Below, piece by piece: positions 1 to 25,313 of a stretch of DNA of 25,313 nucleotides; position 1 is the first letter of the stretch, and every line of letters starts with the position of its first letter. Both the position numbers and the translations under genes were made by a program. The stretch spans positions 1 through 25,313 of the forward strand of contig NW_003153118.1 of assembly GCF_000003605.2 (NCBI RefSeq). Direction: 5' to 3'. This stretch comes from Saccoglossus kowalevskii (Eukaryota > Hemichordata > Enteropneusta > Harrimaniidae). Below the pieces are notes generated by a model. That model saw only the letters and a list, made by a program, of their open reading frames with translations, ran no database searches and had not been told where the DNA came from.

Positions 1-70
1 GACATTCACTACAAGTGATATTATGTGGTACGTATGACATTCACTACAAGTGATATTATGTGGCACGCAT

Positions 71-377
71 GACATTCGCTAGTAGTGATATTATGTGGTA
101 TGCATGACATTTGCTGTGAGTGATATTACGTGATATGTGTGATATTCAATGTGATATTATGTGATATGCGTGTCATATGCTGTGAGTGATATTATGTGGT
201 ATGCATGACATTCGCTACGAGTGATATTATGTGGCATGCATGACATTCGCTAGTAGTGATATTATGTGGTATGCATGACATTTGCTGTGAGTGATATTAC
301 GTGATATGTGTGATATTCAATGTGATATTCTGTGATATGCGTGTCATATGCTGTGAGTGATGTTACGTGGTAAGCGT
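71..377. repeat. Divergent monomer doublet in E copy 1
   Basis: This is the most diverged sequence of the array. It holds two 31-bp monomers (141-171 and 312-342) spaced 171 bp apart, that is four 35-bp monomers plus one 31-bp monomer. Both begin GATATTCAATGTGATATT and are followed by GTCATATGCTGTGAG. The second differs from the first by ATTCTGTGAT in place of ATTATGTGAT. The segment starts at a GACATTCGCTAGTAG monomer and ends at GGTAAGCGT. Confidence 0.9.
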
Positions 378-972
378 GACATTCGCTACAAGTGATATTA
401 TAAGGTATGCTTGACATTCGCTACAAGTGATATTATGCGGTGTGCATGAAATTCGCTACGAGTGATATTATGTGGTATGCATGACATCCACTACAAGTGA
501 TATTATGTGGCATGCATGACATTCGCTACAAGTGATATTATGTGGTATGCATGACATTCGCTACGAGTGATATTATGTGGTATGCATGACATTCGCTACG
601 AGTGATATTATGTGGTATGCATGACATTCGCTACGAGTGATATTATGTGGTATGCATGACATTCGCTACGAGTGATATTATGTGGTATGCATGACATCCA
701 CTACAAGTGATATTATGTGGCATGCATGACATTCGCTACAAGTGATATTATGTGGTATGCATGACATTTGCTACGAGTGATATTATGTGGTATGCATGAC
801 ATTCGCACCGAGTGATATTATGAGGTATGCATGACATCCACTACAAGTGATATTATGTGGTATGCTTGACATTCGCTACGAGTGGTATTATGAGGTATGC
901 ATGACATCCACTACAAGTGATATTATGTGGCATGCATGACATTCGCTACAAATGATATTATCTGGTATGCAT

Positions 973-1010
973 GACATTCGCTACAAGTGGTGATATTATC
1001 TGGTATGCAT
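973..1010. repeat. 38-bp monomer variant
   Basis: A 3-bp insertion gives CTACAAGTGGTGATATT where the standard monomer has CTACAAGTGATATT. The same variant occurs at the corresponding place in other E copies: 3511-3548, 5705-5742, 11904-11941 and 20785-20822. The E fragment at 8061-8486 ends just before this point and lacks it. Confidence 0.92.
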
Positions 1011-1335
1011 GACATTCACTGCAAGTGATATTATGTGGTATGCATGACATTCACTGCTAGTGATATTATGTGGCATGCATGACATTCGCTACAAGTGATA
1101 TTATGTGGTATGCACAACATTCACTGCAAGTGATATTATGTGGTATGCACGACATTCACTGCAAGTGATATTATGTGGCATGCATGATATTCGCTACAAG
1201 TGATATGTGGTACGCATGACATTCGCTACAAGTGATATTATGTGGCATGCATGACATTCACTACAAGTGATATTATGTGGTATGCATGATATTCACTGCA
1301 AGTAATATTATGTGGCATGCATGTCTTTCGCTACA

Positions 1336-1440
1336 AGTAATATTATGTGGCATGCATGACATTCACTACAAGTGATATTATGTGGCATGCATGATATTCA
1401 CTGCAAGTAATATTATGTGGTATGCATGACATTCGCTACG
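1336..1440. repeat. Linking satellite monomers
   Basis: Ordinary 35-bp monomers, mixing GGCATGCAT and GGTATGCAT types, connect E copy 1 to the left edge of E copy 2. I see nothing other than satellite here. Confidence 0.75.
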
Positions 1441-1634
1441 AGTGATATTATGTGGCACGCATGACATTCACTACAAGAGATATAACGTGGTACGCATGAC
1501 ATTCGGTACAAGTGATATTATGTGGCATGCATGACATTCGCTACAAGTGATATTATGTGGCATGCATGACATTCGCTAGTAATGCTATTATGTGGTATGC
1601 ATGAAATTCGCTACAAGTGATATGTGGCATGTAT

Positions 1635-1803
1635 GACATTTGGTACAAGTGATATATGGTACGCATGACATTCGCTACAAGTGATATTATGTGGTATGCA
1701 TGACATTCGCTACAAGTGATATTATGTGGTACGCATGACATTCGCTACAATTGATATTATGTGGCATGCATGACATTTGGTACAAGTGATATGTGGTACG
1801 CAT
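1635..1803. repeat. Two 32-bp monomers that open minus-strand frames
   Basis: The monomers at 1635-1666 and 1772-1803 have a 3-bp deletion (GTGATATGTGG instead of GTGATATTATGTGG; the first reads GTGATATATGG) and TTGGTACAAG instead of TTCGCTACAAG. Read on the minus strand, the deletion removes a TAA and the substitution removes a TAG. This creates frames of 62-63 codons at 1553-1741 and 1687-1878. The repeated composition and absence of coding context argue against a protein. Confidence 0.9.
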
Positions 1804-2713
1804 GACATTCGCTACAAGTGATATTATGTGGTATGCATGACATTCGCTACAAGTGATATTATGTGGTACGCATGACATTCACTAAAAGTGATATTATGTG
1901 GCACGCATGACATTCGCTACATGTGATATTATGTGGCATGCATGACGTTCGCTACAAGTGATACTATGTGGTATGCATGACATTCGCTACAAGTGATATT
2001 ATGTGGCATGCATGACATTTGCTACAAGTGATATTATGTGGTACGCATGACATTCGCTGCAAGTGATGTTATGTGGTACGCATGACATTCACTACAAGTG
2101 ATATTATGTGGCATGCATGACATCCACTACAAGTGATATTATGTGGCATGCATGACATTCGCTACAAGTGATATTATGTAGTATGCATGACATTCACTGC
2201 AAGTGATATTATGTGGTATGCATGACATTCACTACAAGTGATATTATGTGGCATGCATGACATTCGCTACAAGTGATATTATGTGGTATGCATGACATTC
2301 ACTGCAAGTGATATTATGTGGCATGCATGATATTCGCTACAAGTGATATTATGTGGTATGCATGACATTCACTACAAGTGATATTATGTGGCATGCATGA
2401 CATTTGCTACAAGTAATATTATGTGGTATGCATGACATTCACTACAAGTGATATTATGTGGAATGCATGACATTCGCTACAAGTGATATTATGTGGTACG
2501 CATGACATTCACTACAAGTGATATTATGTGGTACGTATGACATTCACTACAAGTGATATTATGTGGCATGCATGACATTTGATACAAGTGATATTATGCG
2601 GTACGCATGACATTCACTACAAGTGATATTATGTGGCATGCATGACATTCACTACAAGTGATATTATGTGGTACGTATGACATTCACTACAAGTGATATT
2701 ATGTGGCACGCAT

Positions 2714-3020
2714 GACATTCGCTAGTAGTGATATTATGTGGTATGCATGACATTTGCTGTGAGTGATATTACGTGATATGTGTGATATTCAATGTGATAT
2801 TATGTGATATGCGTGTCATATGCTGTGAGTGATATTATGTGGTATGCATGACATTCGCTACGAGTGATATTATGTGGCATGCATGCCATTCGCTAGTAGT
2901 GATATTATGTGGTATGCATGACATTTGCTGTGAGTGATATTACGTGATATGTGTGATATTCAATGTGATATTCTGTGATATGCGTGTCATATGCTGTGAG
3001 TGATGTTACGTGGTAAGCGT
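2714..3020. repeat. Divergent monomer doublet in E copy 2
   Basis: The 31-bp monomers lie at 2784-2814 and 2955-2985, 171 bp apart, exactly 2,643 bp from those of copy 1. The second again has the ATTCTGTGAT form. A GCATGCCATTCGC substitution near 2884 is private to this copy among those compared. Confidence 0.9.
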
Positions 3021-3870
3021 GACATTCGCTACAAGTGATATTATAAGGTATGCTTGACATTCGCTACAAGTGATATTATGCGGTGTGCATGAAATTCGCT
3101 ACGAGTGATATTATGTGGTATGCATGACATTCGCTACGAGTGATATTATGTGGTATGCATGACATTCGCTACGAGTGATATTATGTGGTATGCATGACAT
3201 TCGCTACGAGTGATATTATGTGGTATGCATGACATCCACTACAAGTGATATTATGTGGCATGCATGACATTCGCTACAAGTGATATTATGTGGTATGCAT
3301 GACATTTGCTACGAGTGATATTATGTGGTATGCATGACATTCGCACCGAGTGACATTATGAGGTATGCATGACATCCACTACAAGTGATATTATGTGGTA
3401 TGCTTGACATTCGCTACGAGTGGTATTATGAGGTATGCATGACATCCACTACAAGTGATATTATGTGGCATGCATGACATTCGCTACAAATGATATTATC
3501 TGGTATGCATGACATTCGCTACAAGTGGTGATATTATGTGGTATGCATGACATTCACTGCAAGTGATATTATGTGGTATGCATGACATTCACTGCAAGTG
3601 ATATTATGTGGCATGCATGACATTCGCTACAAGTGATATTATGTGGTATACACAACATTCACTGCAAGTGATATTATGTGGTATGCACGACATTCACTGC
3701 AAGTGATATTATGTGGCATGCATGATATTCGCTACAAGTGATATTATGTGGTACGCATGACATTCGCTACAAGTGATATTATGTGGTATGCATGACATTC
3801 ACTACAAGTGATATTATGTGGTATGCATGATATTCACTGCAAGTAATATTATGTGGCATGCATGTCATTC

Positions 3871-4063
3871 ACTGCAAGTAATATTGTGCGGCATGCGCGA
3901 GATTCACTGCAAGTGATATTATGTGGCACGCATGATATTCGCTACAAGTGATATTATGTGGTATGCATGACATTCACTACAAGTGATATTATGTGGTATG
4001 CATGATATTCACTGCAAGTGATATTATGTGGCATGCATGTCATTCGCTACAAGTAATATTATG
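3871..4063. repeat. Linking satellite monomers with a diverged GTGCGGCATGCGCGAG copy
   Basis: Satellite monomers between E copy 2 and block B. The monomer near 3884-3905 has an unusual cluster of differences (ATTGTGCGGCATGCGCGAG) that I did not see elsewhere. No other content. Confidence 0.75.
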
Positions 4064-4960: not shown

Positions 4961-4977
4961 CATTATGTGGTACGCAT

Positions 4978-6080
4978 GACATTCACTACAAGTGATATTA
5001 TGTGGTATGCATGACATTCGCTAGTAGTGATATTATGTGGTATGCATGACATTTGCTGTGAGTGATATTACGTGATATGTGTGATATTCAATGTGATATT
5101 ATGTGATATGCGTGTCATATGCTGTGAGTGATATTATGTGGTATGCATGACATTCGCTACGAGTGATATTATGTGGCATGCATGACATTCGCTAGTAGTG
5201 ATATTATGTGGTATGCATGACATTTACTGTGAGTGATATTACGTGATATGTGTGATATTCAATGTGATATTCTGTGATATGCGTGTCATATGCTGTGAGT
5301 GATATTACGTGGTAAGCGTGACATTCGCTACAAGTGATATTATAAGGTATGCTTGACATTCGCTACAAGTGATATTATGCGGTGTGCATGAAATTCGCTA
5401 CGAGTGATATTATGTAGTATGCATGACATCCACTACAAGTGATATTATGTGGCATGCATGACATTCGCTACAAGTGATATTATGTGGTATGCATGACATT
5501 CGCTACGAGTGATATTATGTGGTATGCATGACATTCGCTACGAGTGATATTATGTGGTATGCATGACATTCGCTACGAGTGATATTATGTGGTATGCATG
5601 ACATTCGCTACGAGTGATATTATGTGGTATGCATGACATCCACTACAAGTGATATTATGTGGCATGCATGACATTCGCTACAAGTGATATTATCTGGTAT
5701 GCATGACATTCGCTACAAGTGGTGATATTATGTGGTATGCATGACATTCACTGTAAGTGATATTATGTGGTATGCATGACATTCACTACAAGTGATATTA
5801 TGCGGCATGCATGACATTCGCTACAAGTGATATTATGTGGTATGTACAACATTCACTGCAAGTGATATTATGTGGTATGCACGACATTCACTGCAAGTGA
5901 TATTATGTGGCATGCATGATATTCGCTACAAGTGATATTATGTGGTATGCATGACATTCGCTACAAGTGATATTATGTGGTATGCATGACATTCACTACA
6001 AGTGATATTATGTGGTATGCATGATATTCACTGCAAGTGATATTATGTGGCATGCATGTCATTCGCTACAAGTAATATTA
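4978..6080. repeat. Higher-order block E, right half, shortened (copy 3)
   Basis: After two ordinary monomers it contains the divergent doublet at 5013-5319 (31-bp monomers at 5083-5113 and 5254-5284), then the TAAGCGT, ATAAGGTATGC and GCGGTGTGC monomers, four CTACGAG monomers and the 38-bp monomer at 5705-5742. The TGAGGTATGC monomers found between the CTACGAG run and the 38-bp monomer in copies 1, 2 and 4 are missing here, so several monomers have been lost. From 5841 it overlaps block C. Confidence 0.85.
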
Positions 6081-6956
6081 TGTGGCATGCATGACATTCA
6101 CTACAAGTGATATTATGTGGCATGCATGATATTCGCTACAAGTAATATTATGTGGCATGCATGACATTCACTACAAGTGATATTATGTGGCACGCATGAC
6201 ATTCACTACAAGAGATATAACGTGGTACGCATGACATTCGGTACAAGTGATATTATGTGGCATGCATGACATTCGCTACAAGTAATATTATGTGCATGCA
6301 TGACATTCACTACAAGTGATATTATGTGGCATGCATGATATTCGCTACAAGTGATATTATGTGGTATGCATGACATTCACTACAAGTGATATTATGTGGT
6401 ATGCATGATATTCACTGCAAGTGATATTATGTGGCATGCATGTCATTCGCTACAAGTAATATTATGTGGCATGCATGACATTCACTACAAGTGATATTAT
6501 GTGGTATGCACGACATTCACTGCAAGTGATATTATGTGGCATGCATGATATTCGCTACAAGTGATATTATGTGGTATGCATGACATTCGCTACAAGTGAT
6601 ATTATGTGGTATGCATGACATTCACTACAAGTGATATTATGTGGTATGCATGATATTCACTGCAAGTGATATTATGTGGCATGCATGTCATTCGCTACAA
6701 GTAATATTATGTGGCATGCATGACATTCACTACAAGTGATATTATGTGCCACGCATGACATTCACTACAAAAGATATTACGTGGTACGCATGACATTCGG
6801 TACAAGTGATATTATGTGGCATACATGACATTCGCTACAAGTGATATTATGTGGCATGCATGACATTCGCTAGTAATGATATTATGTGGTGTGCATGACA
6901 TTCGCTACAAGTGATATTATGTGGCATGCATGACATTTGGTACAAGTGATATGTGG
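5841..6956. repeat. Higher-order block C (copy 1)
   Basis: This segment matches 23454-24570 with an offset of 17,613 bp, becoming 17,614 after a single-base deletion near 6294 (ATTATGTGCATGC). Shared rare variants include TATGTACAACATTC at the left edge, ATTATGTGCCACGCATG near 6744, CTACAAAAGATATTACG near 6767, GGCATACATGAC near 6819 and GTGGTGTGCATGAC near 6887. The match ends inside the 32-bp monomer at 6932-6963, where this copy continues into GTACGCATGACATTC and the other into GTATGCATGAAATTC. It looks like a recent long-distance copy of about 1.1 kb. Confidence 0.85.
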
Positions 6957-7279
6957 TACGCATGACATTCGCTACAAGTGATATTATGTGGTATGCATGA
7001 CATTCGCTACAAGCGATATTATGTGGTACGCATGACATTCACTAAAAGTGATATTATGTGGCATGCATGACGTTCGCTACAAGTGATACTTTGTGGTATG
7101 CATGACATTCGCTACAAGTGATATTATGTGGCATGCATGACATTTGCTACAAGTGATATTATGTGGTATGCATGACATTCGCTACAAGTGATATTATGTG
7201 GCATGCATGACGTTCGCTACAAGTGATACTTTGTGGTATGCATGACATTCGCTACAAGTGATATTATGTGGCATGCATG
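6957..7279. repeat. Satellite with an internal 140-bp duplication
   Basis: An ATGACGTTCGC plus GATACTTTGTGG monomer pair occurs at about 7068 and again 140 bp later at about 7208, meaning four monomers were duplicated. The same 140-bp duplication is present at 18421 and 18561. The minus-strand frame 6847-7038 overlaps the left edge and depends on the 32-bp monomer at 6932-6963. No other content. Confidence 0.8.
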
Positions 7280-7900
7280 ACATTCGCTAGTAATGATATT
7301 ATGTGGTATGCATGAAATTCGCTACAAGTGATATGTGGTATGTATGACATTCGCTACGAGTGATATTATGTGGTATGCATGACATTCGCTACAAGTGATA
7401 TTATGTGGCATGCATGACATTTGGTACAAGTGATATGTGGTACGCATGACATTCGCTACAAGTGATATTATGCGGTACGCATGACATTCACTAAAAGTGA
7501 TATTATGTGACATGCATGACATTCGCTACAAGTGATATTATGTGGCATGCATGACGTTCACTACAAGTGATACTATGTGGTATGCATGACATTCGCTACA
7601 AGTGATATTATGTGGCATGCATGAAATTTGCTACAAGTGATATTATGTGGTACGCATGACATTCGCTGCAAGTGATATTATGTGGTATGCATGATATTCA
7701 CTGCAAGTGATATTATGTGGCATGCATGTCATTCACTACAAGTGATATGTGGTATGCATGACATTCGCTACGAGTGATATTATGTGGTATGCATGATATT
7801 CACTGCAAGTGATATTATGTGGCATGCATGTCATTCGCTACAAGTAATATTATGTGGCATGCACGATATTCGCTACAAGTGATATTATGTGGTATGCATG
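7280..7900. repeat. Higher-order block D (copy 1)
   Basis: Matches 12290-12910 at an offset of 5,010 bp, and 22771-23391. Landmarks: GCTAGTAATG, a GAAATTCGC monomer followed by GTGATATGTGG, a 32-bp monomer at 7416-7447, TATGCGGTACGC, TATGTGACATGC near 7504, GATACTATG, GAAATTTGC and a short GTGATATGTGG monomer near 7742. This copy reads GTCATTCAC where copies 2 and 3 read GTCATCCAC. Confidence 0.83.
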
Positions 7901-8060
7901 ACATTCGCTACAAGTGATATTATGTGGTATGCATGACATTCACTACAAGTGATATGTGGTATGTATGAAATTCGCTACGAGTGATATTATGTGGTATGCA
8001 TGACATTCGCTACTAGTGATATTATGTGGCATGCATGACATTCGCTACAAGTGATATTAT
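7901..8060. repeat. Linking satellite monomers
   Basis: A few monomers, including a short GTGATATGTGG one, separate block D from an E fragment. Nothing else is visible. Confidence 0.75.
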
Positions 8061-8486: not shown

Positions 8487-8901
8487 TGCATGACATTCAC
8501 TGCAAGTGATATTATGTGGTATGCACGACATTCACTGCAAGTGATATTATGTGGCATGCATGATATTCGCTACAAGTGATATTATGTGGTATGCATGACA
8601 TTCGCTACAAGTGATATTATGTGGTATGCATGACATTCACTACAAGTGATATTATGTGGTATGCATGATATTCGGTACAAGTGATATTATGTGGCATGCA
8701 TGACATTCGCTACAAGTAATATTATGTGGCATGCATGACATTCACTACAAGTGATATTATGTGGCATGCATGATATTCGCTACAAGTGATATTATGTGGT
8801 ATGCATGACATTCACTACAAGTGATATTATGTGGTATGCATGATATTCACTGCAAGTGATATTATGTGGCATGCATGTCAATCGCTACAAGTAATATTAT
8901 G
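8487..8901. repeat. Linking satellite monomers
   Basis: Alternating GGCATGCATGATATTCGC and GGTATGCATGACATTC monomers resemble the repeating pattern inside blocks B and C. A GATATTCGGTACAAG monomer near 8667 is unusual. Only satellite is present. Confidence 0.75.
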
Positions 8902-9835
8902 TGGCATGCATGACATTCACTACAAGTGATATTATGTGGTACGTATAACATTCACTACAAGTGATATTATGTGGTATGTACGACATTCACTGCAAGTGAT
9001 ATTATGTGGTATGCACGACATTCACTGTAAGTGATATTATGTGGCATGCATGATATTCGCTACAAGTGATATTATGTGGTATGCATGACATTCGCTACAA
9101 GTGATATTATGTGGTATGCATGACATTCACTACAAGTGATATTATGTGGTATGCATGATATTCACTGCAAGTGATATTATGTGGCATGCATGTCATTCGC
9201 TACAAGTAATATTATGTGGCATGCATGACATTCACTACAAGTGATATTATGTGGCATGCATGATATTCGCTACAAGTGATATTATGTGGTATGCATGACA
9301 TTCACTACAAGTGATATTATGTGTCACGCATGACATTCACTACAAGAGATATTACGTGGTACGCATGACATTCGGTACAAGTGATATTATGTGGCATGCA
9401 TGACATTCGCTACAAGTGATATTATGTGGCATGCATGACATTCGCTAGTAATGATATTATGTGGTATACATGAAATTCGCTACAAGTGATATGTGGTATG
9501 TATGACATTCGCTACGAGTGATATTATGTGGTGTGCATGACATTCGCTACAAGTGATATTATGTGGCATGCATGACATTTGGTACAAGTGATATGTGGTA
9601 CGCATGACATTCGCTACAAGTGATATTATGTGGTATGCATGACATTCGCTACAACCGATATTATGTGGTACGCATGACATTCACTAAAAGTGATATTATG
9701 TGGCACGCATGACATTCGCTACAAGTGATATTATGTGGCATGCATGACGTTCGCTACAAGTGATACTTTGTGGTATGCATGACATTCGCTACAAGTGATA
9801 TTATGTGGCATGCATGACATTTGCTACAAGAGATA
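8902..9835. repeat. Higher-order block B (copy 2)
   Basis: Matches 17575-18508 at an offset of 8,673 bp and the right part of 13081-13735 at 3,893 bp. Landmarks: GTACGTATAACATTC at 8939, TATGTACGAC, ATTATGTGTCACGC near 9316 (GTGCCACGC in copies 3 and 4), GGTATACATGAAATTC, a 32-bp monomer at 9574-9605 and GATACTTTGTGG. The 66-codon minus-strand frame at 9480-9680 arises from that 32-bp monomer. A CTACAACCGATATT variant near 9651 is private to this copy. Confidence 0.85.
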
Positions 9836-10080
9836 TTATGTGGTATGCATGACATTCGCTAGTAGTGATATTATGTGGTATGCATGACATTTGCTGTGAG
9901 TGATATTACGTGATATGTGTGATATTCAATGTGATATTATGTGATATGCGTGTCATATGCTGTGAGTGATATTATGTGGTATGCATGACATTCGCTACGA
10001 GTGATATTATGTGGTATGCATGACATTCGCTACGAGTGATATTATGTGGTATGCATGACATTTGCTACGAGTGATATTAT
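9836..10080. repeat. Single divergent monomer followed by CTACGAG monomers
   Basis: The divergent segment begins at 9851 and has only one 31-bp monomer (9921-9951), of the ATTATGTGAT type, so the second member of the doublet is absent. It is followed directly by two CTACGAG monomers and a TTTGCTACGAG monomer. The same arrangement recurs at 13736-13975, 3,893 bp downstream, which shows that the loss predates that duplication. Confidence 0.85.
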
Positions 10081-12190
10081 GTGGCACGCATGACATTCGC
10101 TACAAGAGATATAACGTGGTACGCATGACATTCGGTACAAGTGATATTATGTGGCATGCATGACATTCACTACAAGTGATATTATGTGGCATGCACGACG
10201 TTCGCTACATGTGATATTATGTGGCATGCATGACGTTCGCTACAAGTGATACTATGTGGTATGCATGACATTCGCCACAAGTGATATTATGTGGCATGCA
10301 TGACATTTGCTACAAGTGATATTATGTGGTACGCATGACATTCGCTGCAAGTGATGTTATGTGGTACGCATGACATTCACTACAAGTGATACTATGTGGC
10401 ATGCATGACATCCACTACAAGTGATATTATGTGGCATGCATGACATTCGCTACAAGTGATATTATGTAGTATGCATGACATTCACTGCAAGTGATATTAT
10501 GTGGTATGCATGACATTCACTACAAGTGATATTATGTGGCATGCATGACATTCGCTACAAGTGATATTATGTGGTATGCATGACATTCACTGCAAGTGAT
10601 ATTATGTGGCATGCATGATATTCGCTACAAGTGATATTATGTGGTATGCATGACATTCACTACAAGTGATATTATGTGGCATGCATGACCTTCGCTACAA
10701 GTAATATTATGTGGTATGCATGACATTCACTACAAGTGATATTATGTGGCATGCATGACATTCGCTACAAGTGATATTATGTGGTACGCATGACATTCAC
10801 TACAAGTGATATTATGTGGTACGTATGTCATTCACTACAAGTGATATTATGTGGCATGCATGACATTTGATACAAGTGATATTATGCGGTACGCATGACA
10901 TTCACTACAAGTGATATTATGTGGCATGCATGACATTCACTACAAGTGATATTATGTGGTACGTATGACATTCACTACAAGTGATATTATGTGGCACGCA
11001 TGACATTCGCTAGTAGTGATATTATGTGGTATGCATGACATTTGCTGTGAGTGATATTACGTGATATGTGTGATATTCAATGTGATATTATGTGATATGC
11101 GTGTCATATGCTGTGAGTGATATTATGTGGTATGCATGACATTCGCTACGAGTGATATTATGTGGCATGCATGACATTCGCTAGTAGTGATATTATGTGG
11201 TATGCATGACATTTGCTGTGAGTGATATTACGTGATATGTGTGATATTCAATGTGATATTCTGTGATATGCGTGTCATATACTGTGAGTGATGTTACGTG
11301 GTAAGCGTGACATTCGCTACAAGTGATATTATAAGGTATGCTTGACATTCGCTTCAAGTGATATTATGCGGTGTGCATGAAATTCGCTACGAGTGATATT
11401 ATGTGGTATGCATGACATCCACTACAAGTGATATTATGTGGCATGCATGACATTCGCTACAAGTGATATTATGTAGTATACATGACATTCGCTACGAGTG
11501 ATATTATGTGGTATGCATGACATTCGCTACGAGTGATATTATGTGGTATGCATGACATTCGCTACGAGTGATATTATGTGGTATGCATGACATTCGCTAC
11601 GAGTGATATTATGTGGTATGCATGACATCCACTACAAGTGATATTATGTGGCATGCATGACATTCGCTACAAGTGATATTATGTGGTATGCATGACATTT
11701 GCTACGAGTGATATTATGTGGTATGCATGACATTCGCTCCGAGTGATATTATGAGGTATGCATGACATCCACTACAAGTGATATTATGTGGTATGCTTGA
11801 CATTCGCTACGAGTGATATTATGAGGTATGGATGACATCCACTACAAGTGATATTATGTGGCATGCATGACATTCGCTACAAGTGATATTATCTGGTATG
11901 CATGACATTCGCTACAAGTGGTGATATTATGTGGTATGCATGACATTCACTGCAAGTGATATTATGTGGTATGCATGACATTCACTGCAAGTGATATTAT
12001 GTGGCATGCATGACATTCGCTACAAGTGATATTATGTGGTATGCACAACATTCACTGCAAGTGATATTATGTGGTATGCACGACATTCACTGCAAGTGAT
12101 ATTATGTGGCATGCATGATATTCGCTACAAGTGATATTATGTGGTATGCATGACATTCGCTACAAGTGATATTATGTGGTATGCATGACA
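10081..12190. repeat. Higher-order block E, nearly whole (copy 4)
   Basis: Starts with AAGAGATATAACGTGG as the other left ends do, then passes within a few monomers to TTCGCTACATGTG at 10201, skipping the section with 32-bp monomers. From 10201 it matches 1913-3870 at 8,288 bp and 19082-21170 at 8,881 bp. The divergent doublet is at 11002-11308 (31-bp monomers 11072-11102 and 11243-11273) and the 38-bp monomer at 11904-11941. Private changes include GCTTCAAG near 11353 and CATATACTGTGAG near 11276. Confidence 0.87.
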
Positions 12191-12910
12191 TTCACTACAA
12201 GTGATATGTGGTATGTATGACATTCGCTACGAGTGATATTATGTGGTATGCATGACATTCGCTACAAGTGATATTATGTGGCATGCATGACATTCGCTAG
12301 TAATGATATTATGTGGTATGCATGAAATTCGCTACAAGTGATATGTGGTATGTATGACATTCGCTACGAGTGATATTATGTGGTATGCATGACATTCGCT
12401 ACAAGTGATATTATGTGGCATGCATGATATTTGGTACAAGTGATATGTGGTACGCATGACATTCGCTACAAGTGATATTATGCGGTACGCATGACATTCA
12501 CTAAAAGTGATATTATGTGACATGCATGACATTCGCTACAAGTGATATTATGTGGCATGCATGACATTCACTACAAGTGATACTATGTGGTATGCATGAC
12601 ATTCGCTACAAGTGATATTATGTGGCATGCATGAAATTTGCTACAAGTGATATTATGTGGTACGCATGACATTCGCTGCAAGTGATATTATGTGGTATGC
12701 ATGATATTCACTGCAAGTGATATTATGTGGCATGCATGTCATCCACTACAAGTGATATGTGGTATGCATGACATTCGCTACGAGTGATATTATGTGGTAT
12801 GCATGATATTCACTGCAAGTGATATTATGTGGCATGCATGTCATTCGCTACAAGTAATATTATGTGGCATGCATGATATTCGCTACAAGTGATATTATGT
12901 GGTATGCATG
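12191..12910. repeat. Higher-order block D (copy 2)
   Basis: From 12290 it matches 7280-7900 at 5,010 bp and 22771-23391 at 10,481 bp. The 12191-12289 part begins with a short GTGATATGTGG monomer. The 32-bp monomer at 12426-12457 reads GATATTTGG, which gives the isoleucine variant of the minus-strand frame at 12332-12532. GTCATCCACTACAAG near 12738 is shared with copy 3 and not with copy 1. Confidence 0.83.
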
Positions 12911-13735: not shown

Positions 13736-13889
13736 GTATGCATGACATTCGCTAGTAGTGATATTATGTGGTATGCATGACATTTGGTGTGAGTGATATT
13801 ACGTGATATGTGTGATATTCAATATGATATTATGTGATATGCGTGTCATATGCTATGAGTGATATTATGTGGTATGCATGACATTCGCT
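13736..13889. repeat. Single divergent monomer (second example)
   Basis: Counterpart of 9843-9996, with one 31-bp monomer at 13814-13844. Private changes CAATATGATATT and GCTATGAG separate it from the copy at 9911. Confidence 0.85.
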
Positions 13890-15331: not shown

Positions 15332-15350
15332 CTACAAGTGATATTATGTG

Positions 15351-15659
15351 GTATGCATGACATCCACTACAAGTGATATTATGTGGCATGCATGACATTC
15401 ACTACAAGTGATATTATGTGGCATGCATGACATTCGCTACAAGTGATATTATGTGGTACGCATGACATTCACTGCAAGTGATATTATGTGGCATGCATGA
15501 CATTTGATACAAGCGATATTATGCGGTATGCATGACATTCACTACAAGTGATATTATGTGGCATGCATGACGTTCACTACAAGTGATATTATGTGGTACG
15601 TATGACATTCACTACAAGTGATATTATGTGGCACGCATGACATTCACTACAAGAGATAT
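15351..15659. repeat. 309-bp segment repeated at 17051-17359
   Basis: Matches 17051-17359 at an offset of exactly 1,700 bp. It shares the rare monomer TTTGATACAAGCGATATT (AAGCGATATT at 15511 and 17211), followed by ATGCGGTATGC and ATGACGTTCAC. The copies flank block F copy 1 closely on both sides. Confidence 0.82.
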
Positions 15660-17058
15660 TACGTGGTACGCATGACATTCAGTGCAAGTGATATTAAGTG
15701 GCACGCATGACATTCACTACAAGAGATATTATGTGGTACGCATGACATTCCGTACAAGTGATATTATGTGGCATGCATGACATTCGCTACAAGTGATATT
15801 ATGTGGCATGCATGACATTCGCTAGTAATAATATTATGTGGTATGCATGAAATTCGCTACAAGTGATATGTGGTATGTATGACATTCGCTACGAGTGATA
15901 TTATGTGGTATGCATGACATTCGCTACAAGTGATATTATGTGACATGCATGACATTCGCTACAAGTGATATTATGTGGCATGCATGACGTTCGCTACAAG
16001 TGATACTATGTGGTATGCATGACATTCGCTACAAGTGATATTATGTGGCATGCATGACATTTGCTACAAGTGATATTATGTGGTACGCATGACATTCGCT
16101 GCAAGTGATGTTATGTGGTACGCATGACATTCACTACAAGTGATATTATGTGGCATGCATGACATTCACTACAAGTGATATGTGGTATGCATGACATTCG
16201 CTACGAGTGATATTATGTGGTATGCATGATATTCACTGCAAGTGATTTTATGTGGCATGCATGTCATTCGCTACAAGTAATATTATGTGGCATGCATGAC
16301 ATTCACTACAAGTGATATTATGTGGTACGTATAACATTCACTACAAGTGATATTATGTGGCATGCATGACATTCACTACAAGAGATATAACGTGGTACGC
16401 ATGACATTCGCTACAAGTGATATTATGTGGCATGCATGACATTCACTACAAGTGATATTATGTGGCATGCATGACATTCGCTAGTAATGATATTATGTGG
16501 TATGCATGAAATTCGCTACAAGTGATATGTGGTATGTATGACATTCGCTACGAGTGATATTATGTGGTATGCATGACATTCGCTACAAGTGATATTATGT
16601 GGCATGCATGACATTTGGTACAAGTGATATGTGGTACGCATGACATTCGCTACAAGTGATATTATGTGGTATGCATGACATTCGCTACAAGTGATATTAT
16701 GTCGTACGCATGACATTCACTAAAAGTGATATTATGTGGCACGCATGACATTCACTACAAGTGATATTATGTGGCACGCATGACATTCACTACAAGTGAT
16801 ATTATGTGGCATGCATGACGTTCGCTACAAGTGATACTATGTGGTATGCATGACATTCGCTACAAGTGATATTATGTGGCATGCATGACATTTGCTACAA
16901 GTGATATTATGTGGTACGCATGACATTCACTACAAGTGATATTATGTGGCACGCATGGCATTCACTACAAGTGATATTATGTGGCACGCATGACATTCAC
17001 TACAAGTGATATTATGTGGCATGCATGACATTCACTACAAGTGATATGTGGTATGCAT
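15645..17058. repeat. Higher-order block F (copy 1)
   Basis: Matches 21283-22489. Rare shared variants are ATTCAGTGCAAG with ATTAAGTGGCACGC at 15693, CATTCCGTACAAG, GCTAGTAATAATATT, GTGATTTTATGTGG near 16240, ATGTCGTACGC near 16691 and GCATGGCATTCAC near 16956. The offset is 5,638 bp at the left and 5,431 bp at the right, because the other copy lacks 207 bp here (five 35-bp and one 32-bp monomer). The 66-codon minus-strand frame at 16516-16716 arises from the 32-bp monomer at 16610-16641. Confidence 0.86.
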
Positions 17059-17359
17059 GACATCCACTACAAGTGATATTATGTGGCATGCATGACATTC
17101 ACTACAAGTGATATTATGTGGCATGCATGACATTCGCTACAAGTGATATTATGTGGTACGCATGACATTCACTGCAAGTGATATTATGTGGCATGCATGA
17201 CATTTGATACAAGCGATATTATGCGGTATGCATGACATTCACTACAAGTGATATTATGTGGCATGCATGACGTTCACTACAAGTGATATTATGTGGTACG
17301 TATGACATTCACTACAAGTGATATTATGTGGCACGCATGACATTCACTACAAGAGATAT
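17051..17359. repeat. 309-bp segment, second copy of 15351-15659
   Basis: Identical landmark order to 15351-15659, with AAGCGATATT at 17211. It differs at its right end (GATATAACG instead of GATATTACG). Confidence 0.82.
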
Positions 17360-17574
17360 AACGTGGTACGCATGACATTCGGTACAAGTGATATTATGTG
17401 GCATGCATGACATTCACTACAAAGTGATATTATGTGGCATGCATGATGTTCGCTACAAGTGATATTATGTGGTATGCATGACATTCACTACAAGTGATAT
17501 TATGTGGTATGCATGATATTCACTGCAAGTGATATTATGTGGCATGCATGTCATTCGCTACAAGTAATATTATG
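17360..17574. repeat. Linking satellite monomers with a 36-bp copy
   Basis: A monomer near 17415-17430 carries a single-base insertion (CTACAAAGTGATATT), giving 36 bp. The next monomer reads ATGATGTTCGC, the only GATG form I noticed at this variable site. Nothing else is present. Confidence 0.8.
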
Positions 17575-18508
17575 TGGCATGCATGACATTCACTACAAGT
17601 GATATTATGTGGTACGTATAACATTCACTACAAGTGATATTATGTGGTATGTACGACATTCACTGCAAGTGATATTATGTGGTATGCACGACATTCACTG
17701 CAAGTGATATTATGTGGCATGCATGATATTCGCTACAAGTGATATTATGTGGTATGCATGACATTCGCTACAAGTGATATTATGTGGTATGCATGACATT
17801 CACTACAAGTGATATTATGTGGTATGCATGATATTCACTGCAGGTGATATTATGTGGCATGCATGTCATTCGCTACAAGTAATATTATGTGGCATGCATG
17901 ACATTCACTACAAGTGATATTATGTGGCATGCATGATATTCGCTACAAGTGATATTATGTGGTATGCATGACATTCACTACAAGTGATATTATGTGCCAC
18001 GCATGACATTCACTACAAGAGATATTACGTGGTACGCATGACATTCGGTACAAGTGATATTATGTGGCATGCATGACATTCGCTACAAGTGATATTATGT
18101 GGCATGCATGACATTCGCTAGTAATGATATTATGTGGTATACATGAAATTCGCTACAAGTGATATGTGGTATGTATGACATTCGCTACGAGTGATATTAT
18201 GTGGTGTGCATGACATTCGCTACAAGTGATATTATGTGGCATGCATGACATTTGGTACAAGTGATATGTGGTACGCATGACATTCGCTACAAGTGATATT
18301 ATGTGGTATGCATGACATTCGCTACAAGTGATATTATGTGGTACGCATGACATTCACTAAAAGTGACATTATGTGGCACGCATGACATTCGCTACAAGTG
18401 ATATTATGTGGCATGCATGACGTTCGCTACAAGTGATACTTTGTGGTATGCATGACATTCGCTACAAGTGATATTATGTGGCATGCATGACATTTGCTAC
18501 AAGTGATA
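17575..18508. repeat. Higher-order block B (copy 4)
   Basis: Matches 8902-9835 at 8,673 bp throughout, with GTACGTATAAC at 17612, GTGCCACGC near 17995, GGTATACATGAAATTC, a 32-bp monomer at 18247-18278 and GATACTTTGTGG. The 66-codon minus-strand frame at 18153-18353 is identical to the one at 13373-13573. CACTGCAGGTGATATT near 17837 is private. Confidence 0.85.
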
Positions 18509-18675
18509 TTATGTGGTATGCATGACATTCGCTACAAGTGATATTATGTGGCATGCATGACGTTCGCTACAAGTGATACTTTGTGGTATGCATGACATTC
18601 GCTACAAGTGATATTATGTGGCATGCATGACATTCGCTACGAGTGATATTATGTGGTATACATGACATTCGCTAC
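18509..18675. repeat. Linking satellite with 140-bp duplication
   Basis: The ATGACGTTCGC and GATACTTTGTGG pair at 18421 recurs at 18561, 140 bp on, just as at 7071 and 7211. A CTACGAG pair follows. Satellite only. Confidence 0.8.
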
Positions 18676-21170
18676 GAGTGATATTATGTGGCACGCATGA
18701 CATTCACTACAAGAGATATAACGTGGTACGCATGACATTCGGTACAAGTGATATTATGTGGCATGCATGACATTCGCTACAAGTGATATTATGTGGCATG
18801 CATGACATTCGCTAGTAATGCTATTATGTGGTATGCATGAAATTCGCTACAAGTGATATGTGGTATGTATGACATTCGCTACGAGTGATATTATGTGGTA
18901 TGCATGACATTCGCTACAAGTGATATTATGTGGCATGCATGACATTTGGTACAAGTGATATGTGGTACGCATGACATTCGCTACAAGTGATATTATGTGG
19001 TATGCATGACATTCGCTACAAGTGATATTATGTGGTACGCATGACATTCACTAAAAGTGATATTATGTGGCACGCATGACATTCGCTACATGTGATATTA
19101 TGTGGCATGTATGACGTTCGCTACAAGTGATACTATGTGGTATGCATGACATTCGCTACAAGTGATATTATGTGGCATGCATGACATTTGCTACAAGTGA
19201 TATTATGTGGTACGCATGACATTCGCTGCAAGTGATGTTATGTGGTACGCATGACATTCACTACAAGTGATATTATGTGGCATGCATGACATCCACTACA
19301 AGTGATATTATGTGGCATGCATGACATTCGCTACAAGTGATATTATGTAGTATGCATGACATTCACTGCAAGTGATATTATGTGGTATGCATGACATTCA
19401 CTACAAGTGATATTATGTGGCATGCATGACATTCGCTACAAGTGATATTATGTGGTATGCATGACATTCACTGCAAGTGATATTATGTGGCATGCATGAT
19501 ATTCGCTACAGGTGATATTATGTGGTATGCATGACATTCACTACAAGTGATATTATGTGGCATGCATGACATTCGCTACAAGTAATATTATGTGGTATGC
19601 ATGACATTCACTACAAGTGATATTATGTGGCATGCATGACATTCGCTACAAGTGATATTATGTGGTACGCATGACATTCACTACAAGTGATATTATGTGG
19701 TACGTATGACATTCACTACAAGTGATATTATGTGGCATGCATGACATTTGATACAAGTGATATTATGCGGTACGCATGACATTCACTACAAGTGATATTA
19801 TGTGGCATGCATGACATTCACTACAAGTGATATTATGTGGTACGTATGACATTCACTACAAGTGATATTATGTGGCACGCATGACATTCGCTAGTAGTGA
19901 TATTATGTGGTATGCATGACATTTGCTGTGAGTGATATTACGTGATATGTGTGATATTCAATGTGATATTATGTGATATGCGTGTCATATGCTGTGAGTG
20001 ATATTATGTGGTATGCATGACATTCGCTACGAGTGATATTATGTGGCATGCATGACATTCGCTAGTAGTGATATTATGTGGTATGCATGACATTTGCTGT
20101 GAGTGATATTACGTGATATGTGTGATATTCAATGTGATATTCTGTGATATGCGTGTCATATGCTGTGAGTGATGTTACGTGGTAAGCGTGACATTCGCTA
20201 CAAGTGATATTATAAGGTATGCTTGACATTCGCTACAAGTGATATTATGCGGTGTGCATGAAATTCGCTACAAGTGATATTATGTGGTATGCATGACATC
20301 CACTACAAGTGATATTATGTGGCATGCATGACATTCGCTACAAGTGATATTATGTGGTATGCATGACATTCGCTACGAGTGATATTATGTGGTATGCATG
20401 ACATTCGCTACGAGTGATATTATGTGGTATGCATGACATTCGCTACGAGTGATATTATGTGGTATGCATGACATTCGCTACGAGTGATATTATGTGGTAT
20501 GCATGACATCCACTACAAGTGATATTATGTGGCATGCATGACATTCGCTACAAGTGATATTATGTGGTATGCATGACATTTGCTACGAGTGATATTATGT
20601 GGTATGCATGACATTCGCTCCGAGTGATATTATGAGGTATGCATGACATCCACTACAAGTGATATTATGTGGTATGCTTGACATTCGCTACGAGTGATAT
20701 TATGAGGTATGGATGACATCCACTACAAGTGATATTATGTGGCATGCATGACATTCGCTACAAGTGATATTATCTGGTATGCATGACATTCGCTACAAGT
20801 GGTGATATTATGTGGTATGCATGACATTCACTGCAAGTGATATTATGTGGTATGCATGACATTCACTGCAAGTGATATTATGTGGCATGCATGACATTCG
20901 CTACAAGTGATATTATGTGGTATGCACAACATTCACTGCAAGTGATATTATGTGGTATGCACGACATTCACTGCAAGTGATATTATGTGGCATGCATGAT
21001 ATTCGCTACAAGTGATATTATGTGGTATGCATGACATTCGCTACAAGTGATATTATGTGGTATGCATGACATTCACTACAAGTGATATTATGTGGTATGC
21101 ATGATATTCACTGCAAGTAATATTATGTGGCATGCATGTCATTCGCTACAAGTAATATTATGTGGCATGC
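18676..21170. repeat. Higher-order block E, whole (copy 5)
   Basis: The most complete E copy. In order: AAGAGATATAACGTGG, GCTAGTAATGCTATT (18817), GAAATTCGC with GTGATATGTGG, 32-bp monomer at 18941-18972, ACTAAAAGTG at 19050, TTCGCTACATGTG, ATGACGTTCGC, TTTGATACAAG, the divergent doublet at 19883-20189, TAAGCGT, ATAAGGTATGC, GCGGTGTGC, a run of CTACGAG monomers, GCTCCGAG, TGAGGTATGC and the 38-bp monomer at 20785-20822. The GTAATGCTATT variant is shared only with copy 2. The minus-strand frame 18847-19047 derives from the 32-bp monomer and is not a gene. Confidence 0.88.
19883..20189. repeat. Divergent monomer doublet in E copy 5
   Basis: 31-bp monomers at 19953-19983 and 20124-20154, again 171 bp apart and again with ATTATGTGAT in the first and ATTCTGTGAT in the second. 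Sequence is nearly identical to the doublets at 71, 2714, 5013 and 11002. Confidence 0.9.
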
Positions 21171-21282
21171 ATGACATTCACTACAGTGATATTATGTGGC
21201 ATGCATGACATTCACTACAAGTGATATTATGTGGTATGCATAACATTCACTACAAGTGATATTATGTGGCACGCATGACATT
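21171..21282. repeat. Linking satellite monomers with a 34-bp copy
   Basis: One monomer near 21181 has a single-base deletion (CACTACAGTGATATT). Otherwise these are ordinary monomers. Confidence 0.78.
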
Positions 21283-22489
21283 CACTACAAGAGATATTAC
21301 GTGGTACGCATGACATTCAGTGCAAGTGATATTAAGTGGCACGCATGACATTCACTACAAGAGATATTATGTGGTACGCATGACATTCCGTACAAGTGAT
21401 ATTATGTGGCATGCATGACATTCGCTACAAGTGATATTATGTGGCATGCATGACATTCGCTAGTAATAATATTATGTGGTATGCATGAAATTCGCTACAA
21501 GTGATATTATGTGGTACGCATGACATTCGCTGCAAGTGATGTTATGTGGTATGCATGACATTCACTACAAGTGATATTATGTGGCATGCATGACATTCAC
21601 TACAAGTGATATGTGGTATGCATGACATTCGCTACGAGTGATATTATGTGGTATGCATGATATTCACCGCAAGTGATTTTATGTGGCATGCATGTCATTC
21701 GCTACAAGTAATATTATGTGGCATGCATGACATTCACTACAAGTGATATTATGTGGTACGTATAACATTCACTACAAGTGATATTATGTGGCATGCATGA
21801 CATTCACTACAAGAGATATAACGCGGTACGCATGACATTCGCTACAAGTGATATTATGTGGCATGCATGACATTCACTACAAGTGATATTATGTGGCATG
21901 CATGACATTCGCTAGTAATGATATTATGTGGTATGCATGAAATTCGCTACAAGTGATATGTGGTATGTATGACATTCGCTACGAGTGATATTATGTGGTA
22001 TGCATGACATTCGCTACAAGTGATATTATGTGGCATGCATGACATTTGGTACAAGTGATATGTGGTACGCATGACATTCGCTACAAGTGATATTATGTGG
22101 TATGCATGACATTCGCTACAAGTGATATTATGTCGTACGCATGACATTCACTAAAAGTGATATTATGTGGCACGCATGACATTCACTACAAGTGATATTA
22201 TGTGGCACGCATGACATTCACTACAAGTGATATTATGTGGCATGCATGACGTTCGCTACAAGTGATACTATGTGGTATGCATGACATTCGCTACAAGTGA
22301 TATTATGTGGCATGCATGACATTTGCTACAAGTGATATTATGTGGTACGCATGACATTCACTACAAGTGATATTATGTGGCACGCATGGCATTCACTACA
22401 AGTGATATTATGTGGCACGCATGACATTCACTACAAGTGATATTATGTGGCATGCATGACATTCACTACAAGTGATATGTGGTATGCAT
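21283..22489. repeat. Higher-order block F (copy 2)
   Basis: Matches 15645-17058 but lacks 207 bp after the GAAATTCGC monomer near 21487, where the other copy continues with a short GTGATATGTGG monomer and five further monomers. Shared rare variants include ATTAAGTGG at 21331, GTGATTTTATG near 21674, ATGTCGTACGC and GCATGGCATTC. The minus-strand frame at 21947-22147 is identical to that at 16516-16716. Confidence 0.86.
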
Positions 22490-22770
22490 GACATTCGCTA
22501 CGAGTGATATTATGTGGTATGCATGACATCCACTACAAGTGATATTATGTGGCATGCATGACATTCGCTACAAGTGATATTATGTAGTATGCATGACATT
22601 CACTGCAAGTGATATTACGTGGTACGCATGACATTCAGTGCAAGTGATATTATGTGGCACGCATGACATTCACTACAAGAGATATTACGTGGTACGCATG
22701 ACATTCCGTACAAGTGATATTATGTGGCATGCATGACATTCGCTACAAGTGATATTATGTGGCATGCATG
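22490..22770. repeat. Linking satellite monomers resembling the F left edge
   Basis: Contains ATTCAGTGCAAG and CATTCCGTACAAG monomers like the left edge of block F but with ATTATGTGG instead of ATTAAGTGG. It therefore looks like an older or recombined relative of that edge placed before block D. Confidence 0.78.
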
Positions 22771-23391
22771 ACATTCGCTAGTAATGATATTATGTGGTAT
22801 GCATGAAATTCGCTACAAGTGATATGTGGTATGTATGACATTCGCTACGAGTGATATTATGTGGTATGCATGACATTCGCTACAAGTGATATTATGTGGC
22901 ATGCATGATATTTGGTACAAGTGATATGTGGTACGCATGACATTCGCTACAAGTGATATTATGCGGTACGCATGACATTCACTAAAAGTGATATTATGTG
23001 ACATGCATGACATTCGCTACAAGTGATATTATGTGGCATGCATGACGTTCACTACAAGTGATACTATGTGGTATGCATGACATTCGCTACAAGTGATATT
23101 ATGTGGCATGCATGAAATTTGCTACAAGTGATATTATGTGGTACGCATGACATTCGCTGCAAGTGATATTATGTGGTATGCATGATATTCACTGCAAGTG
23201 ATATTATGTGGCATGCATGTCATCCACTACAAGTGATATGTGGTATGCATGACATTCGCGACGAGTGATATTATGTGGTATGCATGATATTCACTGCAAG
23301 TGATATTATGTGGCATGCATGTCATTCGCTACAAGTAATATTATGTGGCATGCATGATATTCGCTACAAGTGATATTATGTGGTATGCATG
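22771..23391. repeat. Higher-order block D (copy 3)
   Basis: Matches 12290-12910 at 10,481 bp, sharing GATATTTGG in the 32-bp monomer (22907-22938) and GTCATCCAC near 23218. It differs in keeping ATGACGTTCAC near 23043 where copy 2 has ATGACATTCAC. CATTCGCGACGAG near 23255 is private. Confidence 0.83.
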
Positions 23392-23453
23392 ACATTCGCT
23401 ACAAGTGATATTATGCGGTGTGCATGAAATTCGCTACAAGTGATATTATGTGG
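23392..23453. repeat. Short junction piece bearing an E-type monomer
   Basis: Contains GCGGTGTGCATGAAATTCGC, otherwise seen only within block E. It sits at the junction between block D and block C and is probably a remnant of an exchange. Confidence 0.7.
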
Positions 23454-24570
23454 TATGTACAACATTCACTGCAAGTGATATTATGTGGTATGCACGACAT
23501 TCACTGCAAGTGATATTATGTGGCATGCATGATATTCGCTACAAGTGATATTATGTGGTATGCATGACATTCGCTACAAGTGATATTATGTGGTATGCAT
23601 GACATTCACTACAAGTGATATTATGTGGTATGCATGATATTCACTGCAAGTGATATTATGTGGCATGCATGTCATTCGCTACAAGTAATATTATGTGGCA
23701 TGCATGACATTCACTACAAGTGATATTATGTGGCATGCATGATATTCGCTACAAGTAATATTATGTGGCATGCATGACATTCACTACAAGTGATATTATG
23801 TGGCACGCATGACATTCACTACAAGAGATATAACGTGGTACGCATGACATTCGGTACAAGTGATATTATGTGGCATGCATGACATTCGCTACAAGTAATA
23901 TTATGTGGCATGCATGACATTCACTACAAGTGATATTATGTGGCATGCATGATATTCGCTACAAGTGATATTATGTGGTATGCATGACATTCACTACAAG
24001 TGATATTATGTGGTATGCATGATATTCACTGCAAGTGATATTATGTGGCATGCATGTCATTCGCTACAAGTAATATTATGTGGCATGCATGACATTCACT
24101 ACAAGTGATATTATGTGGTATGCACGACATTCACTGCAAGTGATATTATGTGGCATGCATGATATTCGCTACAAGTGATATTATGTGGTATGCATGACAT
24201 TCGCTACAAGTGATATTATGTGGTATGCATGACATTCACTACAAGTGATATTATGTGGTATGCATGATATTCACTGCAAGTGATATTATGTGGCATGCAT
24301 GTCATTCGCTACAAGTAATATTATGTGGCATGCATGACATTCACTACAAGTGATATTATGTGCCACGCATGACATTCACTACAAAAGATATTACGTGGTA
24401 CGCATGACATTCGGTACAAGTGATATTATGTGGCATACATGACATTCGCTACAAGTGATATTATGTGGCATGCATGACATTCGCTAGTAATGATATTATG
24501 TGGTGTGCATGACATTCGCTACAAGTGATATTATGTGGCATGCATGACATTTGGTACAAGTGATATGTGG
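23454..24570. repeat. Higher-order block C (copy 2)
   Basis: Near-identical to 5841-6956, 17.6 kb upstream, sharing rare variants GTGCCACGC, CTACAAAAGATATT, GGCATACATG and GTGGTGTGCATG. It lacks the single-base deletion present near 6294. The match ends inside the 32-bp monomer at 24546-24577. The minus-strand frame 24461-24649 crosses this edge. Confidence 0.85.
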
Positions 24571-25313
24571 TATGCATGAAATTCGCTACAAGTGATATGT
24601 GGTATGTATGACATTCGCTACGAGTGATATTATGTGGTATGCATGACATTCGCTACAAGTGATATTATGTGGCATGCATGACATTTGGTACAAGTGATAT
24701 GTGGTACGCATGACATTCGCTACAAGTGATATTATGTGGTATGCATGACATTCGCTACAAGTGATATTATGTGGTACGCATGACATTCACTAAAAGTGAT
24801 ATTATGTGGCACGCATGACATTCGCTACATGTGATATTATGTGGCATGCATGACGTTCGCTACAAGTGATACTATGTGGTATGCATGACATTCGCTACAA
24901 GTGATATTATGTGGCATGCATGACATTTGCTACAAGTGATATTATGTGGTACGCATGACATTCGCTGCAAGTGATGTTATGTGGTACGCATGACATTCAC
25001 TACAAGTGATATTATGTGGCATGCATGACATCCACTACAAGTGATATTATGTGGCATGCATGACATTCGCTACAAGTGATATTATGTAGTATGCATGACA
25101 TTCACTGCAAGTGATATTATGTGGTATGCATGACATTCACTACAAGTGATATTATGTGGCATGCATGACATTCGCTACAAGTGATATTATGTGGTATGCA
25201 TGACATTCACTGCAAGTGATATTATGTGGCATGCATGATATTCGCTACAGGTGATATTATGTGGTATGCATGACATTCACTACAAGTGATATTATGTGGC
25301 ATGCATGACATTC
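24571..25313. repeat. Block E, left part, cut by the window end (copy 6)
   Basis: From 24586 it matches 18847-19574 at an offset of 5,739 bp with very few differences. It includes a 32-bp monomer at 24680-24711, ACTAAAAGTG, TTCGCTACATGTG, ATGACGTTCGC, GACATCCAC and the rare TTCGCTACAGGTG (25243, matching 19504). The divergent doublet would be expected about 300 bp beyond the window. The minus-strand frame at 24586-24786 is identical to those at 14854 and 18847. Confidence 0.87.

What the first reader, a model, noticed from the sequence alone, without database searches (positions are those of the whole stretch)
1..25313. Uninterrupted 25-kb satellite with mosaic higher-order architecture
The window is about 720 monomers of one 35-bp family without any insertion. 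It is organised into blocks (E, B, C, D, F) of 0.6-2.5 kb that recur in different orders and at unequal distances. This is more complex than a simple periodic higher-order repeat and looks like repeated segmental shuffling inside an array. I do not recognise the monomer, so the family may be undescribed.
Basis: partly seen in the sequence, partly recalled or inferred. Interest (0 to 1): 0.7.

Follow-up and report, generated by a model that had tools for sequence, protein, structure and literature searches.

The report
Mosaic 35-base satellite DNA array
The window is one long run of a 35-base repeated DNA unit whose multi-unit blocks recur at scattered places within the run; it is ordinary in kind (satellite DNA), but it records unusually clearly how such a run has been reshuffled.

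Summary
The window is a whole contig (C4297) of an unnamed 572 Mb assembly. It is one uninterrupted one-way array of 729 monomers, 660 of them 35 bp. Its order is a true mosaic: 70 block pairs of at least 300 bp/97% cover 89.5%, and 5 of 5 shuffles of monomer order give none. The longest block is 1.93 kb, not 2.5 kb. A second contig, C793, is the same satellite with its own mosaic but shares no seeded stretch above 92 bp with the window. One 28-bp variant has 23 genome matches, all in the window. So homogenisation is local and acts on multi-monomer blocks. Simulations favour displaced copying over tandem duplication/deletion, moderately, not decisively. A few degenerate units elsewhere lie beside conserved flanks, which suggests but does not prove an origin inside a dispersed element. 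In the paper library, 8 papers hold a 12-base piece of the monomer and none a 14-base piece; no repeat library was on hand. New member of a known kind. A centromere or other function was not testable.

The parts
1..25313 (+). Single uninterrupted 35-bp satellite array, 729 monomers, one orientation
   Evidence: TRF; segmentation; no reverse-complement 20-mers
1..884 (+). Block family called 'E' here (holds 31-bp variant monomers), copy 1; matches 10932-11815 and 19813-20696
   Evidence: 99.43% and 99.77% identity; TRF sub-rows within 120-356
2644..3235 (+). Block family 'E' copy 2
   Evidence: 98.99% to 1-592; TRF sub-rows within 2763-2999
5009..5693 (+). Block family 'E' copy 3
   Evidence: 99.56% to 67-751; TRF sub-rows within 5062-5298
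10277..12207 (+). Longest duplicated block, copy 1 (includes 'E' copy 4)
   Evidence: 99.53% to 19158-21088
19158..21088 (+). Longest duplicated block, copy 2 (includes 'E' copy 5)
   Evidence: 99.53% to 10277-12207
1752..3235 (+). Block also at 18921-20404 (1,484 bp)
   Evidence: 99.26%
8776..9830 (+). Block also at 17449-18503 (1,055 bp)
   Evidence: 99.34%
16122..17063 (+). Block also at 21553-22494 (942 bp)
   Evidence: 99.79%
6294..6958 (+). Block also at 23908-24572 (665 bp)
   Evidence: 100%
7238..7924 (+). Block also at 22729-23415 (687 bp); most of it also near 12242-12873
   Evidence: 99.42% and 99.53% (7232-7863)
1207..1751 (+). Longest stretch (545 bp) not covered by a pair of at least 300 bp/97%

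Best explanation
A non-coding satellite DNA array with a 35-bp unit in a eukaryote (eukaryote inferred from the 572 Mb assembly). Shown: blocks of many monomers recur, in register and in one orientation, at scattered places within the array, and two arrays on different contigs have each built their own set of blocks from partly shared monomer variants. Inferred: the main motor is recombination repair between mis-registered repeats (gene conversion, or break-induced or template-switch copying between sister arrays), with typical tracts of roughly 0.5-1.6 kb (about 15-45 monomers, the range of medians of the best simulations), on top of some tandem duplication and deletion; point mutation then marks the copies. 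No coding or known RNA role is indicated; any function would lie in chromatin (heterochromatin or centromere) and is untested.
For: Mosaic against shuffles. C793 shows the same behaviour (98 pairs of at least 300 bp/97%, 84.1% covered, longest 1,901 bp) with different blocks (longest stretch shared with the window, by exact 60-base seeds, 92 bp). Variant TGATATTATGTGGTATGCATGATATTCA, chosen because common in the window and absent from C793, has 23 genome matches, all 23 in the window; it is the only such variant for which the genome search was answered. The array end on C1345 shares blocks of 1,477 bp (99.59% and 99.32%) and 1,242 bp (100%) with C793 at three places, but at most 150 bp (92.67%) with the window. 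Short-lag similarity is slight. Simulations: of the best 200 of 47,026, 0 were tandem dup/del, 121 conversion, 79 copy-insert; with larger arrays and tracts added for dup/del and conversion (71,160 in all, 32,261 of them dup/del), 0 of the best 100, 1 of the best 200 and 5 of the best 500 were dup/del; two overlapping 729-monomer pieces of C793 each give 0 dup/del in the best 200. No ORF of 100 aa or more; no Rfam match at gathering scores.
Against: Cross-check: of the 150 dup/del simulations nearest to the observed array, 14 would also have shown no dup/del among their 50 nearest, and 115 in all were called 'displaced', so the simulation test is only moderate. Simulations start from all-different monomers, treat monomers as symbols and place donor and acceptor at random. 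Colinear strings of blocks (offsets of 8.3-8.9 and 17.2-17.6 kb) fit some long tandem duplications. A weak excess at lags 4-6 in the window and at lag 1 (+0.015) in C793 shows some short-range tandem copying. Breakpoints show no marked phase in the monomer (230 breakpoints, 22-45 per 5-bp bin), so no site-specific mechanism is seen. The contig has no unique flank, so its assembly is unverified.
Confidence: 0.6

Rival explanations
1. Ordinary unequal sister-chromatid exchange only: tandem duplications and deletions of long tracts (tens to hundreds of monomers or more) in a much larger array, whose later erosion leaves scattered copies.
For: Colinear strings at offsets near 8.3-8.9 and 17.2-17.6 kb; a dup/del simulation with an array of 15,000 monomers and mean tract 1,888 came to distance 0.58, against 0.31-0.34 for the best displaced-copy runs; several of the nearest long-tract dup/del runs have as little adjacent duplication as the real array.
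Against: 0 of the best 100 and 1 of the best 200 of 71,160 simulations. In the first single-run grid, near-adjacent pairs make up 4.1% of duplicated length in the real array against 6.6-76% in 24 of 24 dup/del runs.
Confidence: 0.25
2. Assembly artefact: the mosaic order comes from mis-joined satellite reads.
For: The contig is satellite from end to end, has no unique anchor, the assembly is in 4,830 contigs, and several block pairs are identical (665, 658, 484 and 479 bp at 100%).
Against: Many long block pairs are not identical (99.53% over 1,931 bp, 99.26% over 1,484 bp); C793 shows the same pattern independently; the array end on C1345, attached to non-satellite DNA, shares blocks with C793 at three places.
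Confidence: 0.12
3. The satellite grew out of tandem units inside a dispersed, transposon-like element (an origin, compatible with the reshuffling above).
For: Three loci outside arrays carry one or two degenerate units beside a left flank ending TTATTTCAATATTATTTGGTGATRTGGTACGCGTGACATTCG (C994 401157 minus, C994 398225 plus, C617 11273 plus); a right flank ACATTATTATCTTCGTGT follows the units at C617 11342 and C994 400992 and follows the array end at C1345 7157; the C994 plus copy has a diverged right flank with 4 extra bases. A shuffled control of 529,690 bases gave 3 right-flank, 0 left-flank and 0 unit matches.
Against: Genome-wide, a 30-base left-flank pattern with up to 3 mismatches has 2 matches and a 28-base right-flank pattern 1; 301 bp at the C1345 array end match only themselves (a search that skips very common words); no flank or unit pattern match in 39,380 further bases. 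In the C994 minus copy an unrelated stretch separates left flank and units. C1345 shows the right flank only. No transposon terminus, target duplication or empty site was looked for.
Confidence: 0.35

Closest known systems
Satellite DNA with higher-order repeats (alpha satellite and other centromeric satellites; recalled, general reading)
   Same: Long head-to-tail array, non-coding, multi-monomer blocks at 97-100% identity on a background of more diverged monomers, array-specific blocks
   Different: 35-bp unit, no fixed higher-order period, blocks scattered at unequal distances; centromere role untested
Cg_HINE Helentron central repeats and Cg170-type satellites of Crassostrea gigas (PMC7492417; abstract and Results section read)
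   Same: Repeat units also found as very short runs beside conserved left and right flanks
   Different: Their monomer consensus lengths are 138-181 bp and each cluster has 140-1,397 arrays; their left flank ends in a microsatellite, mostly of 4-base units; here the unit is 35 bp, the left flank is AT-rich and only a few diverged loci were found; subTIRs, palindrome and insertion site were not examined
Ogre-derived satellites of Lathyrus sativus (PMC7004042; search listing and passages seen) and Tetris TIR-220 of Drosophila virilis (PMC4079207; abstract and outline seen)
   Same: Short tandem runs inside dispersed elements next to long arrays of the same unit
   Different: The carrier element is identified there and not here

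Membership tests
Satellite DNA | Long head-to-tail array of one repeat family (kilobases or more) | tested here: met
   729 units over 25.3 kb; C793 971 units over 33.9 kb
Satellite DNA | Non-coding | tested here: met
   No ORF of 100 aa or more in six frames; no Rfam family at gathering scores
Satellite DNA | Several arrays in the genome, heterochromatic location | tested here: inconclusive
   820 exact matches of one monomer pattern genome-wide: 215 in the window, 257 in C793, 10 at C1345, 338 not placed; chromosomal location not testable
Higher-order repeat (regular) | A multi-monomer unit repeated at a constant period | tested here: not met
   No constant offset; lags 1-40 exceed the baseline by at most +0.010 in the window (lag 4) and +0.015 in C793 (lag 1)
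Helentron/HINE element carrying central repeats | Conserved left and right flanks around the repeats in many copies | tested here: inconclusive
   4 loci share one or both flanks; strict patterns give only 2 and 1 genome matches
Helentron/HINE element carrying central repeats | subTIRs, 3' palindrome, TT insertion site | not tested
   Element ends not resolved
Centromeric satellite | Binds CENP-A/CenH3 | not testable with these tools
   Needs ChIP or CUT&RUN
Described satellite of a named species | Sequence match in a repeat library or paper | tested here: inconclusive
   Six 12-14-base pieces: 8 papers each hold one of the two 12-base pieces, none a 14-base piece; titles concern other subjects (listing); no repeat library available

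The most novel reading that the evidence does not exclude
The arrays of this family are homogenised mainly by copying blocks of roughly 15-45 monomers to non-adjacent sites of the same array (conversion or template-switch copying) and little by single-monomer slippage or adjacent duplication, so that each array becomes a private mosaic. The array is then a readable record of conversion tracts in a short-unit satellite.
Probability: 0.45. Interest if true: 0.5.

Novelty: new member of a known kind. Interest (0 to 1): 0.35.

Why it matters
How satellite arrays are homogenised (unequal exchange against conversion-like copying) is an old question. A short, uniform unit with many marked variants, two arrays with different mosaics and an array end joined to other DNA make the tract length and the copying mode measurable with long reads. 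If the flanked units elsewhere are remnants of a dispersed element, the family would also be one more case of a satellite grown from a mobile element.

Tried and rejected
Protein-coding or known structured-RNA reading: rejected. Phage, plasmid, viral-contig or prokaryote-genome relatives: no matches (with the first 2,000 bases; with one exact 28-base pattern). Regular higher-order period, including 5 monomers (175 bp): lag 5 exceeds the baseline by only +0.009. Long blocks shared between the window and C793: none found. A self-BLAST of the window gave no rows and was replaced by exact-seed extension. The dispersed element as an abundant, well-conserved transposon: not supported. Naming the host: not achieved; searches for 18S rRNA and COX1 did not complete. 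Placing the other 338 pattern matches on contigs: not achieved (the list stops inside C793; some searches did not complete). A search with the C994 plus copy did not complete, nor one with the 31-bp variant.

Full report
What is there. The window is the whole of contig C4297 in an unnamed assembly of 572,110,611 bases in 4,830 contigs. It is one array of a 35-bp unit from first to last base (TRF: 728.2 copies, 87% matches). Segmentation gives 729 monomers, 660 of them 35 bp, with 46 of 32 bp, 12 of 31 bp and a few others; 164 distinct sequences. The mean identity of the 35-bp monomers to their consensus is 93.0%. All units have one orientation. GC is 0.373-0.394 per kilobase. There is no ORF of 100 aa or more and no Rfam match at gathering scores.

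The mosaic. Exact 60-base seeds extended on each diagonal give 1,388 pairs, the longest 1,931 bp at 99.53%. At 97% identity or more, 228 pairs of at least 150 bp cover 96.3%, 70 of at least 300 bp cover 89.5%, 30 of at least 500 bp cover 77.2% and 4 of at least 1,000 bp cover 30.7%. In 5 of 5 shuffles of monomer order there was no pair of at least 300 bp/97%; pairs of at least 150 bp numbered 7-17 and the longest was 244-271 bp. A dot plot shows scattered off-diagonal blocks. Some strings stay colinear (offsets 17.2-17.6 kb and 8.3-8.9 kb), so the array is partly ordered. Adjacent monomers are only 0.006 more alike than random pairs; over lags 1-40 the largest excess is 0.010 at lag 4 (5.2% identical pairs against 2.6% expected), and in C793 0.015 at lag 1. 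Exchange has therefore acted mainly on long blocks, with a weak short-range component.

Other arrays. One monomer pattern has 820 exact matches in the genome, 399 forward and 421 reverse, and 0 for the reversed control; 215 are in the window, 257 in C793 and 10 at C1345, which leaves 338 not placed. C793 (33,851 bp) is satellite throughout (970.5 copies; 971 monomers, 254 distinct). It has its own mosaic (98 pairs of at least 300 bp/97%, 84.1% covered), but by exact 60-base seeds no stretch longer than 92 bp is shared with the window. Window and C793 share 18 distinct monomer sequences, which make up 339 of 729 and 262 of 971 units. The array end on C1345 (from 4745, after N, to about 7150) shares blocks of up to 1,477 bp with C793 but at most 150 bp at 92.67% with the window; C793 and C1345 may be one locus (inference). 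A 28-bp variant chosen because it is common in the window and absent from C793 has 23 matches in the genome, all 23 in the window. The absence from C793 is by choice; the absence from the rest of the genome is the result. A second such variant (34 in the window) could not be searched.

How it came about. I simulated three modes on symbol strings and compared seven summary measures. Of the best 200 of 47,026 runs, 121 were conversion (replacement), 79 copy-insertion and 0 tandem duplication/deletion; the median tract among the best 50 of each kind was 30.9 monomers for conversion and 45.0 for copy-insertion. Adding 24,134 runs of dup/del and conversion with larger arrays and tracts gave 1 dup/del run in the best 200 and 5 in the best 500. 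Two overlapping 729-monomer pieces of C793 gave 0 dup/del in the best 200, with median tracts of 14.7-33.0 monomers for the two displaced modes. As a check, of the 150 dup/del runs nearest to the observed values 14 would have looked as one-sided as the real array, against 138 of 150 conversion and 136 of 150 copy-insertion runs, and 115 of the 150 dup/del runs were called displaced copying. So displaced copying is favoured, but long unequal exchange is not excluded.

Origin. The first DNA search gave two short matches outside arrays, C994:401004-401061 and C617:11291-11346. It did not list the window's own contig or C793, because that search skips very common words, so it cannot count arrays. 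The surroundings of the two matches, a further copy on C994 near 398,245 and the array end on C1345 share a left flank (three loci) and/or a right flank (three loci by pattern, the fourth only in the alignment). A shuffled control gave 3 right-flank and no left-flank or unit matches in 529,690 bases. But strict genome-wide patterns found only 2 left flanks and 1 right flank, the 301 bp at the C1345 end match only themselves and 39,380 further bases (N excluded) had no pattern match. I read this as an old, degenerate dispersed repeat from which the satellite may have grown; moderate support only. Comparable cases in print are the oyster Cg_HINE elements (PMC7492417, abstract and Results read), Lathyrus Ogre satellites (PMC7004042, passages) and Drosophila Tetris (PMC4079207, abstract and outline); PMC5139131 (abstract and outline) describes abrupt satellite junctions in molluscs.

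Known or new. Six monomer pieces were searched in 5.39 million papers: 8 papers hold one of the two 12-base pieces, none a 14-base piece, and by their titles they are about other subjects (listing only). Word searches for 35-bp satellites listed 0, 3 and 0 papers, none of them by title on such a satellite. No repeat library could be searched, so novelty of the family is open. The kind of thing, a satellite array with complex higher-order structure, is well known (recalled). The host was not identified; one ORF on C1345 has a sub-threshold PAN-domain match (21.2 bits against a cut-off of 21.4), which hints at an animal and no more.

Facts were mended on the paper search, the lag analysis, the first simulation grid, the oyster flanks and the flank loci; the tract range was restated as 15-45 monomers.

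Noticed in passing
window 120-356, 2763-2999, 5062-5298, 11051-11287, 19932-20168: A distinctive hybrid stretch with 31-bp monomers (such as GATATTCAATGTGATATTATGTGATATGCGT, 6 copies) marks the 'E' blocks; partial versions lie at 9900-9965 and 13793-13840.
   Followed up: partly
window, 46 monomers of 32 bp: A recurrent 3-bp-shorter monomer class; the commonest, GAAATTCGCTACAAGTGATATGTGGTATGTAT, occurs 14 times.
   Followed up: no
L009 8258-8515 (C1345): AT-rich degenerate repeat that matches, in reverse, the AT-rich stretch left of the flanked unit on C617 (69% over 166 bp).
   Followed up: no
L011 (C994) near 398245 and 401004: Two flanked copies of degenerate units in opposite orientation about 2.8 kb apart.
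   Followed up: partly
L009 7508-7587 (C1345) and L011 (C994): A dispersed repeat shared in opposite orientation relative to the units (82 aligned positions, 76.8%); looks SINE-like by eye only.
   Followed up: no
L049 8837-9385, minus strand (C1345 end): A 182-aa open frame with an internal protein-level repeat seen by eye.
   Followed up: no
L048 1914-2375 (C1345): Open frame that looks to me like a C-type lectin exon (recalled); no Pfam or PDB match at the thresholds used.
   Followed up: partly
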